Assembly (NCBI GenBank): GCA_021299715.1 | Contig: JAJTEL010000006.1 | Coordinates: 1 to 64,000, forward strand | DNA length: 64,000 bases | Direction: 5' to 3' | Source: Ilumatobacteraceae bacterium | Lineage (GTDB): Bacteria > Actinomycetota > Acidimicrobiia > Acidimicrobiales > Ilumatobacteraceae | Shown: positions 1-26,157 of the stretch, one piece after another | How the letters are laid out: every line of letters begins with the position of its first letter | Position numbering within the stretch: the first letter of the stretch is position 1 | Notes under the pieces: generated by a model | The model's database searches: none | Told to the model about the DNA's origin: nothing | What the model saw: only the letters and a program-made list of their open reading frames with translations | Made by a program: the position numbers and the translations under genes

Positions 1-41
1 GAGTCGGGAATTGAAGCCGCAGATAGCCTCGCATAGCACCA

Positions 42-118
42 CGGGGTGTGGCGCAGCTTGGTAGCGCGCGTCGTTCGGGACGACGAGGCCGCAGGTTCAA
101 ATCCTGTCACCCCGACCA
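42..118 (+). tRNA. tRNA-Pro (anticodon CGG)
   Basis: This is a 77-base cloverleaf. The acceptor arm CGGGGTG pairs with CACCCCG, the anticodon arm is CGTCG-TTCGGGA-CGACG with CGG at positions 34-36, and the T arm carries GGTTCAAATCC. The discriminator A and a genomically encoded CCA (116-118) complete the 3' end. It reads the proline codon CCG. A hairpin terminator follows directly. Confidence 0.95.
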
Positions 119-17653: not shown

Positions 17654-20656
<3,003 letters not shown>

Positions 20657-22772: not shown

Positions 22773-22785
22773 GATTTCCCCTTTT

Positions 22786-22802
22786 GGTACAAAAAATGTA
22801 CC
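22786..22802. promoter_or_regulatory. HxlR operator between MFS pump and regulator
   Basis: GGTACAAAAAATGTACC is a perfect 6-5-6 inverted repeat midway between the divergent starts (MFS 22772, HxlR 22811). It overlaps a -10-like TACATT (22800-22795, minus) for the pump and TACCAT (22799-22804, plus) for the regulator. A bound dimer would block both genes. Confidence 0.75.
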
Positions 22803-22804
22803 AT
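22799..22804 (+). promoter_or_regulatory. -10 element of the HxlR gene (leaderless)
   Basis: TACCAT ends 6 bases before the HxlR ATG at 22811 and overlaps the right arm of the operator palindrome. Confidence 0.5.
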
Positions 22805-22810
22805 GTAGAC

Positions 22811-23203
22811 ATGAGCCGTTCGCGATCCACGAAATCCGCTGTCTCCACGCATCGCAGTTACGACATGAACTGCCCCATCGCGAAGTCACTCGACCTCATG
22901 GGAGACCGCTGGACACTTCTCATCCTGCGTGATCTTTTCATTTCATCATCGTGTCGATACGTTGAACTTCGAGAAAGCCTCACTGGTGTTTCACCCACAC
23001 TTCTCTCGCAAAGAATCAAAGATCTCATCAACAACGGTCTCATTGAACAATGTGAGAAACCTGGTACCGGGCACATTGCATACAGGCTCACCCCACGCGG
23101 CAAAGAAACCAAGCCCATCTTGGTTGCGCTCGCAAAGTTTGGGCTACCCGAAATTGACGGGCGTGTGCCCGACAAAGCGTGGCGAACCTTCACAAGCAAA
23201 TAA
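22811..23203 (+). CDS. HxlR-family winged-helix regulator
   Basis: The 130-residue protein has the HxlR hallmarks: an N-terminal cysteine in NCPIAKSLDLMGDRWTLLIL, the helix-turn-helix ELRESLTGVSPTLLSQRIKDL, and the wing HIAYRLTPRGKE. HxlR proteins often sense electrophiles or oxidants through that cysteine. ATG 22811 is chosen because the longer frame (from 22784) would run through the operator and the -10. It probably represses both itself and the divergent MFS pump. The stop codon touches the left repeat of the tRNA-Ser island. Confidence 0.92.
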   Translation: MSRSRSTKSAVSTHRSYDMNCPIAKSLDLMGDRWTLLILRDLFISSSCRYVELRESLTGVSPTLLSQRIKDLINNGLIEQCEKPGTGHIAYRLTPRGKETKPILVALAKFGLPEIDGRVPDKAWRTFTSK

Positions 23204-23303
23204 AACAAAAACGACCCAGCCGAAGCTGGGTCGTAATGGCGGAAGAGGTGGGATTTGAACCCACGGTGGCTATTCACCACAACGGTTTTCGAGACCGTCC
23301 TAT
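23203..23303 (-). repeat. Left 101-bp direct repeat of the tRNA-Ser island (attL/attR)
   Basis: This segment is identical over 101 bases to 25253-25353. It holds the last two thirds of tRNA-Ser(CGA), including the anticodon arm, variable arm, T arm and CCA, plus the tRNA's hairpin terminator. Beyond 23303 the sequence leaves the tRNA. Confidence 0.9.
23237..23303 (-). pseudogene. tRNA-Ser(CGA) 3' fragment, displaced by the island
   Basis: The fragment runs from just before the anticodon stem to CCA (23239-23237). It lacks the acceptor 5' strand and the D arm. It can be mistaken for a tRNA because everything 3' of that point is perfect. It is followed by its own terminator hairpin (23211-23234 with a T-rich tract to 23203, minus strand). 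Confidence 0.9.
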
Positions 23304-23391
23304 CTTTTCACATGCTCAGACACTTGAAAGGACATCGTTATTAAGTCGTATGTGATAGGTAATGCGCTACAGAGAAATAGGGACTATCAAA

Positions 23392-25191
23392 ATGGCAAAA
23401 CTAATTCCACCAAAATTTCCCTTTCCAAATGATCCAATGCGGAAAGCTGAGCACAAGTTCTATAAGGCATGTCGAGAGCAACTAGACAACGACTGGCATG
23501 TTCTCTACAACGTGTCATGGACGGGGCCGCGAAATGGTCACAATGACGATTGCGACTCCGATTTTCTTTTGATACACCCTCGTTTTGGGCTGTTCACAGT
23601 TGAGGTCAAAGGGGGACAAAGAATCTGGGTCGAAAATGGCTCTTGGTTTACTCAGCCCCACGGAAATTTCGATGCTCGGAAAATCAAAGACCCAGCAGTG
23701 CAAGCCTCCGAGTCAAAACGTTTTCTCTACAGCTTCATCACAAGAAATGCAGACGTAAGGCTGAACGGATCATTTGGTCACATGGTGGTATTCCCTGGAC
23801 ACACACAAGTTGATGACATGGCTCCACATCTTCCACGTCGAATTATTTGTGACTCAGACGATTTGAACAATCTTTCAGAAAAATTGACGGACATAGCTAA
23901 CTACTGGAATCAGAAACACCAGTTTGACGAGGATGCGGTCAAAAGGATTGTCGACTCACTTATTCCGAGTTTTCAATTAATTGGCGCAAGTCGATTGCAA
24001 GTTGATGAAGTCGAACATAGTCTCAGAATGTTGACCAATGCTCAACTCGAAGTTTGGTCAATGCTTGACGATGTAAAGAAATTAATCGTGACTGGTGGGG
24101 CCGGAACTGGGAAGACTGTTTTGGCCTTCAACAAAGCAATTACTCTCGCAAATCGTGGCTTTAAAGTGCTTTATCTTTGTGCAACAGACGGATTAGCGCA
24201 TTCGCTGCATGACCAACTTTCGAATAGTCATGATTCAATCAAAACTAAAGTCTTTATAGTTTCCGAAGAGACATTCTCTAGTGCCATTAGTAGAGAAATA
24301 CAGTCCGGGCGGGAATTAGACTCCGATATTGAAATTGAATGCATGGTTCAAGCACTCAACCGTCTCAATTCCCAAGTCAATGAAAGCATTGATTTTGACG
24401 CTGTAATTGTCGATGAAGCACAATCAGTATCAGCCAGAATCTACGAGCTTTTTTCAATATTCAGAGCAACACAATCTTGTGAGTACATCTTTGGAGATCA
24501 TTTTCAAGATTGGAACGATGACTCTGTTCTTGCAGCTACCAATTTTCACGAGAGAAAGACGCTCACAATAAATTGTCGATCGACCGGAGAAATCTCTCAA
24601 TATGCCGCTGACTTTATTGGACGACGTGAGGAATCTGGTCAGTTGCAGAGTGTCAATGGACCTGAAGTGACTGCCGCCTTCACTAGTAGACAAGGCGTCG
24701 TTGCTGACGTGGCAAGTATTGTCAAGGAATGGATGCTGGAATACGCCGTTTCAGAGGACGAGATTGTGATTTTATGTGACAATTCATTTCAGCCAGAACT
24801 CTCAGATGATTTCGGGGAAACTCCAAGAGGAATAACAACTCACGAATCTTTTGGGATTGATTGGCGTTCATCCTGGGATACGTTTGATGTTTGGTCACCA
24901 CCAACTTGGAAAATCTCCCGAAAGAACCGAGATTCTCAGACTTCGCTAAATGCAGCAACGAGCAAAGAAATAACAAAATTCATAACGTTTAGAGATAGTT
25001 TTCCTCTCCCGCTGATTCAGGTTTGTCCAATTTCTCGTTTTTTAGGTCTAGAGAGTCTCGCTGTCTTAGTAGTTACAGGAATGTCTAATCCAGCTGGAAT
25101 CGCCAATCCAGCACGAGTTGAATCTGACATGTATGTGGCTTGCTCTCGGGCTCGGTCAATTCTCGGGCTTGTGGTGGTGCTACCGAGTTAG
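23392..25191 (+). CDS. NERD nuclease domain fused to SF1 (UvrD-like) helicase
   Basis: The 599-residue protein is the only gene of the island. The N-terminal NERD domain (about residues 15-125) shows the PD-(D/E)xK-type signature: DSDFLLIHPRFGLFTVEVKGG (acidic residue, then E-x-K) and QASESKRF, so DNA cleavage is plausible. The helicase part has TNAQLEVW (Q-motif position), Walker A GGAGTGKT (about 225), Walker B VIVDEAQS, motif III YIFGDHFQDWND, motif IV NCRSTGE, a degenerate motif V (ISRFLGLESL) and motif VI YVACSRARS. Many such fusions lie in phage-defence islands; defence is an inference from architecture and location. ATG 23392 has AGGGA 9 bases upstream; ATG 23362 is the alternative. 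Confidence 0.88.
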   Translation: MAKLIPPKFPFPNDPMRKAEHKFYKACREQLDNDWHVLYNVSWTGPRNGHNDDCDSDFLLIHPRFGLFTVEVKGGQRIWVENGSWFTQPHGNFDARKIKDPAVQASESKRFLYSFITRNADVRLNGSFGHMVVFPGHTQVDDMAPHLPRRIICDSDDLNNLSEKLTDIANYWNQKHQFDEDAVKRIVDSLIPSFQLIGASRLQVDEVEHSLRMLTNAQLEVWSMLDDVKKLIVTGGAGTGKTVLAFNKAITLANRGFKVLYLCATDGLAHSLHDQLSNSHDSIKTKVFIVSEETFSSAISREIQSGRELDSDIEIECMVQALNRLNSQVNESIDFDAVIVDEAQSVSARIYELFSIFRATQSCEYIFGDHFQDWNDDSVLAATNFHERKTLTINCRSTGEISQYAADFIGRREESGQLQSVNGPEVTAAFTSRQGVVADVASIVKEWMLEYAVSEDEIVILCDNSFQPELSDDFGETPRGITTHESFGIDWRSSWDTFDVWSPPTWKISRKNRDSQTSLNAATSKEITKFITFRDSFPLPLIQVCPISRFLGLESLAVLVVTGMSNPAGIANPARVESDMYVACSRARSILGLVVVLPS

Positions 25192-25252
25192 CTTCGTTAT
25201 TTCGAAATGCCAGATGTTGCGCTTTCCGTAATGACATTTCGATAGTGATGAC

Positions 25253-25284
25253 AAACAAAAACGACCCAGCCGAAGCTGGGTCGT
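25253..25284 (-). terminator. Terminator of tRNA-Ser(CGA)
   Basis: A perfect 10-bp stem (ACGACCCAGC / GCTGGGTCGT) with a CGAA loop is followed on the minus strand by TTTTTGTTT. It lies 3 bases beyond the CCA end and is duplicated in the left repeat. Confidence 0.85.
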
Positions 25285-25353
25285 AATGGCGGAAGAGGTG
25301 GGATTTGAACCCACGGTGGCTATTCACCACAACGGTTTTCGAGACCGTCCTAT
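25253..25353 (-). repeat. Right 101-bp direct repeat of the tRNA-Ser island
   Basis: Identical to 23203-23303. This copy is continuous with the tRNA 5' part, so it belongs to the functional tRNA-Ser(CGA). The identity ends between the D arm and the anticodon stem, which brackets the crossover. Confidence 0.9.
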
Positions 25354-25375
25354 TCGGCCGCTCTAGCACCCTTCC
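25287..25375 (-). tRNA. tRNA-Ser (anticodon CGA)
   Basis: This is an 89-base class II tRNA with a long variable arm. The acceptor GGAAGGG pairs with CTCTTCC through one G-U, the anticodon arm is ACGGT-CTCGAAA-ACCGT with CGA at 34-36, and CCA is encoded (25289-25287). It reads UCG. Its 3' two thirds come from the integrated island. It follows the tadA stop by 20 bases on the same strand. Confidence 0.95.
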
Positions 25376-25395: not shown

Positions 25396-25845
25396 CTATG
25401 AACGCTTTGAGGAGAAGAATTCCTTCAACAACTCAGCAGATTCTTCGGCCAAAACACCATGTTCTACTGGCGGATTGTGACCAAGACGCGGGTCGCTCAT
25501 GACGTTGTACAAACTTGCTGTTGCTCCGGCTTCAAAGTTCGCTGCGCCGTAGACAAGACGGCCAATACGAGCAGATTGCGTTGCACCAGCGCACATGACA
25601 CACGGTTCCAACGTAACGACCAATGTGCAATCACTTAATCGCCAACTACCCAACAGTGCACTGGCGTCGCGAAGAGCAAGTACCTCAGCGTGAGCGGTGG
25701 GGTCGTTGCTGGCCTCACGCTCATTGTGACGGCGTGCGATGACATCGCCATTGCGCAACACCACAGCACCTACCGGCACATCACCCTTTGCAGCGGCAAG
25801 TTTTGCCTCTTCAAGCGCGATTCGCATTGCCTCTTCATGAGTCAT
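25396..25845 (-). CDS. tadA: tRNA-specific adenosine deaminase
   Basis: TadA converts A34 to inosine in tRNA-Arg(ACG) so that it can read CGU, CGC and CGA. The 149-residue zinc deaminase has the HAE motif (TAHAEVLALRDA) and PCVMCAG zinc ligands, with VPVGAVV near the N-terminus. I place the start at ATG 25845, because TAGGTT ends 6 bases upstream; a GTG two codons earlier is possible. It lies between two tRNA-Ser genes on the same strand. It should not be confused with the pilus ATPase of the same name at 48-49 kb. Confidence 0.95.
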   Translation of the reverse strand: MTHEEAMRIALEEAKLAAAKGDVPVGAVVLRNGDVIARRHNEREASNDPTAHAEVLALRDASALLGSWRLSDCTLVVTLEPCVMCAGATQSARIGRLVYGAANFEAGATASLYNVMSDPRLGHNPPVEHGVLAEESAELLKEFFSSKRS

Positions 25846-25851
25846 GGGCAC

Positions 25852-26044: not shown

Positions 26045-26157
26045 GAGGTGGCGGTCGGGTCCTGTGCGACGGTCGCCCGTAAACCAGGTCAGGTCCTGAC
26101 GGAAGCAGCCTCCACACGGGAACGATCGTGCGCCGCAGGTCGCCTGGCCGTCACTTC
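26045..26157 (+). ncRNA. ffs: Signal recognition particle RNA (4.5S, small bacterial type)
   Basis: The core GTAAACCAGGTCAGGTCCTG followed by ACGGAAGCAGCC matches the conserved Ffh-binding internal loops and closely resembles the mycobacterial 4.5S RNA core (GTCAACCGGGTCAGGTCCGG as I recall it). The flanks fold into one long helix: GTGGCGGTCGGGT (from 26048) pairs, with several G-U, with the complement ending CCGTCAC (26154). Ends are estimated from the helix. The RNA forms the SRP with Ffh for membrane-protein targeting. The 90 bases upstream (25954-26044) hold its promoter, which I cannot place exactly. Confidence 0.85.

What the first reader, a model, noticed from the sequence alone, without database searches (positions are those of the whole stretch)
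23203..25375. Single-gene island in tRNA-Ser(CGA) with 101-bp direct repeats and no integrase
A perfect 101-bp duplication covers two thirds of tRNA-Ser(CGA) and its terminator. The copies bound 1949 bases of A+T-richer DNA with one gene. The geometry (element on the 3' side, tRNA restored, crossover just 5' of the anticodon stem) is that of tyrosine-recombinase integration, yet no recombinase is present. It is a minimal, probably trans-mobilised element. Repeat identity and geometry are seen; mode of integration is inference.
Basis: partly seen in the sequence, partly recalled or inferred. Interest (0 to 1): 0.82.

Follow-up and report, generated by a model that had tools for sequence, protein, structure and literature searches.

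The report
Single-gene cassette inserted at tRNA-Ser
A freshwater bacterium carries one extra, probably anti-virus gene slipped in behind a tRNA gene between two identical tRNA pieces: a small gene parcel of a recognised kind that has no machinery of its own for moving.

Summary
A perfect 101-bp repeat (23203-23303 = 25253-25353) spans tRNA-Ser(CGA) positions 23-89 plus 34 nt holding its terminator. It bounds 1949 bp (43.5% GC; other windows mean 51.8%), about 94% one intact gene: a NERD nuclease + SF1 helicase resembling defence proteins. The sister species G023 has an empty site; so do G008 and G010. The own genome (92.8% complete) shows only XerC and XerD as tyrosine recombinases.

It is not alone. 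The same genome has a second single-gene island (alpha-L-rhamnosidase) at tRNA-Thr(CGT). Relatives carry tandem arrays of such cassettes there, whose longest copies start in the anticodon stem, as does the repeat of an 8.4-kb integrase-bearing element at tRNA-Arg(CCT). The rhamnosidase cassette is 94% identical between two species whose neighbouring DNA is 73-74% identical, and the match stops exactly at the tRNA copies: integrase-less cassettes move as units.

Best reading: a site-specific cassette inserted by a tyrosine integrase that is not in the element. Helper-borne (trans) versus lost by decay is unresolved. tRNA cassettes with end repeats are published (Ca. Actinomarinales, Methylopumilus; CIMEs), so this is a new member of a known kind.

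The parts
25287..25375 (-). intact tRNA-Ser(CGA), the insertion target; its 5' 22 nt are chromosomal, the rest lies in the right-hand repeat copy
25253..25353 (-). right repeat copy (tRNA positions 23-89 + 34 nt): by the geometry of integration the copy brought by the element (inferred)
23203..23303 (-). left repeat copy, distal end of the island: displaced original 3' end of the tRNA and its terminator, continuous with the flank seen in G023
25332..25348 (-). anticodon stem-loop (tRNA positions 28-44), presumed integrase core site; copy at 23282-23298
   Evidence: sequence; the role is inferred
25261..25284 (-). terminator hairpin, right copy
23211..23234 (-). terminator hairpin, left copy
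23304..25252 (.). element body, 1949 bp, GC 0.435
23392..25191 (+). cargo gene, NERD nuclease + SF1 helicase, 599 aa from this start (ORF opens at 23362, 609 aa); reads towards the tRNA 3' end
22784..23203 (+). flanking HxlR-type regulator gene, next to the tRNA terminator in the empty sites of G008 and G010
25396..25851 (-). flanking tadA-type deaminase gene on the 5' side of the tRNA

Best explanation
A minimal site-specific gene cassette. A DNA circle carrying one gene and a copy of the 3' part of tRNA-Ser(CGA) with its terminator recombined with the chromosomal tRNA gene, most likely across the anticodon stem-loop, catalysed by a phage- or ICE-type tyrosine integrase that is not encoded in the element. 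The element's copy rebuilt the tRNA and its terminator; the original 3' part was pushed to the far end. The cargo, an intact NERD nuclease-helicase, probably acts as a one-gene anti-phage system. Shown: insertion, empty sites, geometry, absence of an integrase in the element, lineage-specific presence, the same anatomy at a second tRNA, and movement as a unit for that second cassette. Inferred: the catalyst, the crossover point, the circle, the defence function. Open: whether the integrase acts in trans from a visiting element or was lost after insertion.
For: Perfect repeat from tRNA position 23 through tRNA end and terminator. Empty site in G023, G008, G010. A genus element with integrase has the same layout: tRNA-Arg(CCT), 47-nt repeat from position 28, 401-aa integrase beside the tRNA, 8.4 kb (L215); a 372-aa tyrosine integrase also sits next to a tRNA-Thr(CGT) (L212). 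At tRNA-Thr(CGT) the longest copies start at positions 28-31, within the anticodon stem (G009, G030, G016, G014, G020, G028). Second single-gene island in the same genome (rhamnosidase, 24-nt copy). That cassette is 94.2% identical over 2533 bp between G000 and G008, the match running from tRNA position 49 (the first base of G008's copy) to the last base of the distal copy, while upstream and downstream DNA matches at 74.1% and 72.6% and eight genes around tRNA-Ser at 75-83% nt. Both copies of the 101-bp block are identical; the nearest relative differs by 1, the next by 7, the others by 11-43 columns. The cargo keeps all checked NERD and helicase motifs; best PADLOC model RTasNERD-Hel, 1.1e-49.
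Against: No integrase-bearing element or other insertion was found at tRNA-Ser(CGA): 0 of 26 distinct loci with at least 2.5 kb held downstream. No circle, attP or phage with the site in viral contigs (exact patterns only). The repeat is longer (101 vs 46-49 nt) and reaches 5 nt beyond the stem and into the terminator, unlike the tRNA-Thr and tRNA-Arg cases. Total identity of the copies can come from recent insertion within the species or from gene conversion. No excision data.
Confidence: 0.62

Rival explanations
1. Remnant (CIME in the strict sense): a larger integrase-bearing element entered the tRNA and lost everything but one gene and the two ends.
For: Integrase-bearing elements with this geometry exist in the genus. 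Decay is the standard origin given for CIMEs (PMC5704250, passages). No such helper is known for this tRNA.
Against: The body is about 94% one intact ORF with only about 60-90 nt on either side, no remnant genes. Single-gene contents recur: 13 of 17 closed elements seen here, or 4 of 8 distinct cargo types (not independent). The rhamnosidase cassette moved between species in its reduced form.
Confidence: 0.2
2. Homologous or homology-facilitated illegitimate recombination after DNA uptake: a fragment with a tRNA end and a foreign gene was taken up and inserted using tRNA homology, with no site-specific recombinase.
For: No mobile integrase in the genome; a 101-nt perfect repeat is long enough for RecA. 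In G009 and G030 the small-protein cassette is followed by a tRNA copy of the foreign T-arm type (31-32 nt, 97-100%) while the host tRNA has another type, opposite to what simple integration with a crossover in the anticodon would leave.
Against: The longest copies start at the anticodon stem at tRNA-Thr, and so does the integrase-bearing element's; homologous recombination gives no reason for a common edge.
Confidence: 0.13
3. Host XerC/XerD move the cassette, as with pdif modules.
For: XerC and XerD are the only PF00589 proteins found in the own assembly; this XerC is long (438 aa) with two stretches matching the SAM-like domain PF02899.
Against: The tRNA anticodon arm does not look like a dif site (recalled, not aligned). 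Both Xer genes sit in ordinary chromosomal neighbourhoods (dprA-xerC-sigma-rpsB-tsf; scpA/scpB-xerD). The same geometry occurs with ordinary integrases.
Confidence: 0.03
4. Assembly or binning artefact.
For: It is a metagenome-type assembly in 16 contigs with no reads at hand; G023's contig ends 16 nt beyond the terminator.
Against: Flanks on both sides agree with independent relatives and a second island of the same kind is found with close copies in three other genomes.
Confidence: 0.02

Closest known systems
tRNA-targeted gene cassettes of additive flexible genomic islands in 'Candidatus Actinomarinales' (PMC7771536; passages seen)
   Same: Streamlined aquatic Actinomycetota; [quoted passage not shown] transfer of a cassette between genera reported; the word integrase does not occur in the held text.
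   Different: Described mostly inside one envelope-polysaccharide island; here stand-alone single genes with defence-like and sugar-hydrolase cargo, and a repeat that includes the terminator.
Additive island fGI-2 of 'Candidatus Methylopumilus' (PMC10872708; passages seen)
   Same: Freshwater streamlined bacteria; repeated last 20 nt of tRNA-Lys in varying number; size 330 bp-42 kb, 1 to 63 genes, so single-gene units are included.
   Different: Other phylum and tRNA; shorter repeats; authors describe many unknown proteins, no single-gene unit singled out in the passages.
CIME, cis-mobilizable element (definition in PMC5704250, passage); integrase-free ssrA islands of Dehalococcoides (PMC3146451, passages)
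   Same: att-like repeats at both ends, no integration or transfer genes, tandem accretion at one target.
   Different: Defined as decay products of ICEs/IMEs; origin by decay not shown here. Dehalococcoides islands use a serine recombinase and a 20-bp repeat.
Tycheposons and phage satellites (named in PMC11389934 and PMC10872708, passages; original paper not held)
   Same: tRNA-inserted cargo carriers of aquatic bacteria.
   Different: 4-200 kbp with their own tyrosine recombinase per PMC10872708; this is 1.9 kb without one.
Integron cassette arrays without integrase (CALIN; PMC11389934, passages)
   Same: Works like: tandem single-gene units moved in trans, new ones next to a fixed site.
   Different: No attC sites or IntI; the ends are tRNA 3' fragments.
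NERD-helicase of defence loci (PADLOC RTasNERD-Hel; Nhi)
   Same: Cargo protein matches RTasNERD-Hel at 1.1e-49 and Nhi at 1.7e-7.
   Different: No reverse transcriptase beside it; single gene; homologues 23-31% identical.

Membership tests
CIME / integrase-less genomic island | att-derived direct repeats at both ends, one in the target gene | tested here: met
CIME / integrase-less genomic island | no integrase and no transfer genes | tested here: met
   one gene only; no PF00589 or PF00239 hit in the element
CIME / integrase-less genomic island | derived by decay of an ICE or IME | tested here: inconclusive
   no remnants in the body; no parent element at this tRNA in 26 loci with enough sequence
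CIME / integrase-less genomic island | can be mobilised by a related element | not testable with these tools
   needs excision assay or circle reads
additive-island tRNA cassette | variable insertion at a tRNA, absent in close relatives | tested here: met
   empty sites
[quoted passage not shown]
additive-island tRNA cassette | several cassettes stacked at the same tRNA | tested here: not met
   one cassette only at tRNA-Ser(CGA); stacking is met at tRNA-Thr(CGT) in relatives
tycheposon / integrative element with own recombinase | encodes a tyrosine recombinase | tested here: not met
integron or CALIN | attC sites and IntI | tested here: not met
   ends are tRNA 3' sequence; the only two PF00589 proteins found are XerC and XerD. 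No dedicated attC model was run
DRT (defence reverse transcriptase) system | reverse transcriptase gene next to the helicase | tested here: not met
   no other gene in the island; neighbours are HxlR and tadA
NERD-domain nuclease fused to SF1 helicase | NERD ExK motif, Walker A and B, helicase motif VI | tested here: met
NERD-domain nuclease fused to SF1 helicase | anti-phage activity | not testable with these tools
   needs plating assay

The most novel reading that the evidence does not exclude
An integron-like gene-shuffling system built on tRNA 3' ends: single genes of any kind (nuclease-helicase, rhamnosidase, a 95-aa membrane protein) circulate among freshwater Acidimicrobiia as recombinase-free cassettes of 0.3-3.5 kb, stacked behind tRNA genes, and are moved wholesale by integrases of visiting elements; hosts need no resident integrase at all.
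Probability: 0.22. Interest if true: 0.75.

Novelty: new member of a known kind. Interest (0 to 1): 0.45.

Why it matters
Streamlined freshwater bacteria are short of plasmids and prophages, yet their strains differ in single genes. Cassettes that carry only a gene and a borrowed tRNA end, that spread between species (94% identity against 73-74% for the surrounding DNA), and that need no recombinase of the host would be a cheap route for defence and sugar-use genes. The two-tRNA comparison here makes the question of the missing recombinase directly testable, because candidate helper integrases at tRNA-Thr(CGT) and tRNA-Arg(CCT) are now named.

Tried and rejected
Cargo and att in viruses: the cargo protein and three exact att patterns gave nothing in viral contigs; this tests exact or close matches only. 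Phage records gave 2 distant hits to the cargo, plasmids 20, of which the 10 listed are 23-31% identical.

Origin of the cargo: 21 of 221 family genomes (own included) at E <= 1e-10, 24-31% identical apart from itself; 3 of 397 order genomes (own included) at E <= 1e-30, the two others 29%. None of the 20 + 12 + 2 homologue loci examined holds a tRNA, so the gene is not generally a tRNA cassette.

More islands in the own genome: of 41 tRNAs searched within stretches around them, two have a 3' copy, Ser(CGA) and Thr(CGT); the other listed matches were Ser(GGA) and Ser(GCT) cross-matching the left copy and one 18-nt match of tRNA-Asp on another contig, dismissed as chance. In G029, a second genome, 0 of 43 ARAGORN tRNAs (two stretches overlap; Rfam found 42) has one. 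So such islands are rare and this genus is not full of them.

Other occupied tRNA-Ser(CGA) sites: none in 25 relative loci (20 with 2.5 kb or more downstream; G023 has only 49 bases), 9 GTDB loci and later family loci; counting only distinct loci with 2.5 kb or more, 0 of 26. The 1.5-kb flanks of most later loci could not have shown a copy 2 kb away. G108's partial match is a contig end; L286's repeat is, as I read it, a neighbouring tRNA-Ser cut by the contig end. G113 and G187 have tRNA-Ser(CGA) on two contig ends that merely overlap by 141 and 149 bases.

Serine recombinase in the own genome: no PF00239 match. Xer-driven movement: considered, no support. PDB sequence search: only weak P-loop matches. 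NCBIfam: nothing above its cut-off. No structure was predicted. Promoter scan of the element: no more hits than in shuffles.

Small-protein cassette as proof of transfer: against G028 the G114 cassette (87%) is about as similar as the flank (84%), so inheritance is possible; against G009 it is 84% vs 72%.
Full report
What is there. The window is the start of contig C12 of a 1.9-Mb, 92.8% complete genome in 16 contigs. A perfect 101-bp direct repeat lies at 23203-23303 and 25253-25353. On the minus strand the right copy is positions 23-89 of an intact tRNA-Ser(CGA) (25287-25375) plus 34 nt with its terminator; the hairpin is intact in both copies. Between them are 1949 bp of GC 0.435 (z = -5.7 against 580 windows) with one gene and about 60-90 nt on either side.

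Insertion. In G023, whose tadA, exonuclease and pirin proteins are 96-97% identical, the contig reads tadA, tRNA-Ser(CGA), terminator and then 16 nt that equal the window's left flank apart from one T, and ends. G008 and G010 have the single tRNA and terminator followed by the HxlR gene (84% identical protein) and the MFS gene. So the site was empty and the island was gained after the split from G023, at the exact 3' side of the tRNA.

The cargo. Pfam gives NERD (4.9e-12) and SF1-type helicase/AAA models above their cut-offs; PADLOC's best model is RTasNERD-Hel (1.1e-49, residues 11-475), then a NERD+UvrD model (3.1e-16), AbiO and Nhi. Homologues put the start at 23392, and the NERD ExK, Walker A, Walker B, the NCR motif and motif VI are all present. 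Relatives are distant everywhere searched (23-31% identity). Defence is inferred from these resemblances; no reverse transcriptase accompanies it.

Where is the recombinase? PF00589 finds two proteins in the own assembly. One lies in dprA-xerC-sigma factor-rpsB-tsf, the other by scpA/scpB: they are XerC and XerD. No resolvase-type recombinase was found. About 7% of the genome is missing, including tRNA-Arg(CCT), a site used by an integrase-bearing element in G024, so a hidden integrase cannot be excluded.

A second island. I searched 41 own tRNAs for copies of their 3' ends. Besides Ser(CGA), tRNA-Thr(CGT) has a perfect 24-nt copy (positions 48-71) 2.5 kb downstream. Between lies a single gene, an alpha-L-rhamnosidase of 779 aa, reading towards the tRNA 3' end like the NERD-helicase, with low GC3 (0.394, NERD gene 0.390, seven neighbours 0.448-0.553).

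Arrays in relatives. In 20 loci with tRNA-Thr(CGT), partial copies stack behind the tRNA: three in G008, three in G009, two in G030, one each in G016, G014, G020 and G028 (the first copies in G009 and G030 are weak, E = 0.24 and 0.039, but match another tRNA variant over 31-32 nt at 97-100%). The longest copies begin at positions 28-31, in the anticodon stem, and end at or just past the tRNA end. Counting every unit closed by a tRNA or copy on both sides, I find 17: 13 hold one recognisable gene (NERD-helicase; rhamnosidase in four genomes; a small membrane protein in seven; a 1015-aa protein in G016), G008 has one of three genes and one without any ORF of 90 aa, G009 one of up to three, and G024's carries an integrase. 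These are not independent: there are 8 cargo types, 4 of them single-gene.

Movement as a unit. The rhamnosidase unit of G000 and that of G008 match at 94.2% over 2533 bp, from tRNA position 49 (the first base of G008's copy) to the last base of the distal copy; DNA upstream of the tRNA matches at 74.1% and downstream DNA at 72.6%. For G009 it is 89.1% against 74.4%, for G030 86.3% against 71.9%. Eight genes around tRNA-Ser are 75-83% identical between G000 and G008. It is the first unit in G000, the second in G009 and G030, the third in G008. G023 and 26 other genus genomes have no close copy; G015 has a broken 57% piece. So an integrase-less single-gene unit bounded by tRNA copies crossed species borders. 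A 105-bp end of it also occurs behind the small-protein unit in G114, another genus, at 94-95%.

Geometry and mechanism. An element with its own integrase in G024 has a 47-nt repeat from position 28 of tRNA-Arg(CCT) and the integrase gene beside the tRNA. A second integrase sits beside a tRNA-Thr(CGT) on a short contig of G021, whose bin has two versions of that tRNA, so that contig may be foreign. The common edge at the anticodon stem points to a tyrosine integrase with its core in the anticodon stem-loop (established knowledge for tRNA integration). In the window the shared block starts 5 nt before the stem, as expected if the outer core arm is shared as well.

Where the copies came from. 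By geometry the right copy came with the element. The two copies are identical; G023 differs in 1 of the aligned columns, G018 in 7, the other relatives in 11-43. So the element carried a tRNA end of its own species, or the copies were evened out by gene conversion. The first fits circulation inside one population.

Against my reading. No other insertion was seen at tRNA-Ser(CGA) in 26 loci with enough sequence, none of 43 tRNAs in G029 has a copy, no virus carries the exact att, and in G009/G030 a foreign-type tRNA copy lies on the 'wrong' side of the small-protein unit, which simple integration does not predict. The small-protein unit may be largely inherited. None of this tells trans action from later loss of an integrase for the window's element itself.

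What is known. Papers were seen as search listings and passages only. Ca. [quoted passage not shown] Ca. Methylopumilus has additive islands with repeats of the last 20 nt of tRNA-Lys, 1 to 63 genes (PMC10872708). Alteromonas additive islands use a tRNA as target (PMC4119200). Elements without integration genes but with both att sites are CIMEs (PMC5704250), and 15 integrase-free ssrA islands are known in Dehalococcoides (PMC3146451). My searches showed no report for Ilumatobacteraceae (no paper held all three terms) and none of a one-gene NERD-helicase tRNA cassette, but that pairing was not searched as such. The kind is known; this is a clean, minimal member with useful comparisons.

Noticed in passing
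L130:7239-9819 (own genome, contig C9): Second single-gene island at tRNA-Thr(CGT): alpha-L-rhamnosidase between the tRNA and a 24-nt copy of its 3' part; a highly similar unit in G008, G009 and G030.
   Followed up: yes
L193, L194, L196, L197, L207, L306, L199 just behind tRNA-Thr(CGT) or one of its copies: A 306-390 bp cassette with one 78-98 aa protein (mostly proline-rich, two hydrophobic stretches) recurs at tRNA-Thr(CGT) across at least two genera.
   Followed up: partly
L192:9530-11017 (G008): A 1485-bp unit between two tRNA-Thr copies without any ORF of 90 aa or Rfam match; nature unknown.
   Followed up: partly
L117:9694-11007: The own XerC is long (438 aa); PF02899 (SAM-like DNA-binding domain) matches it in two stretches; about 440-480 aa frames are common in the genus.
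   Followed up: no
window 1-114: The window's first 114 bases overlap the end of contig C6 in tRNA-Pro(CGG): the assembly breaks at this tRNA.
   Followed up: no
window 26053-26152: Bacterial small SRP RNA gene (RF00169, 64 bits) downstream of tRNA-Ser(GGA).
   Followed up: no
own genome: tRNA-Arg(CCT) and tRNA-Leu(CAG), present in G029, are not among the 41 tRNAs found in the own assembly.
   Followed up: no
window 17654-20656: Relatives of this 1000-aa repeat-rich protein gene lie right beside tRNA-Ser(CGA) in G019, G029 and G012: the area is reshuffled.
   Followed up: no
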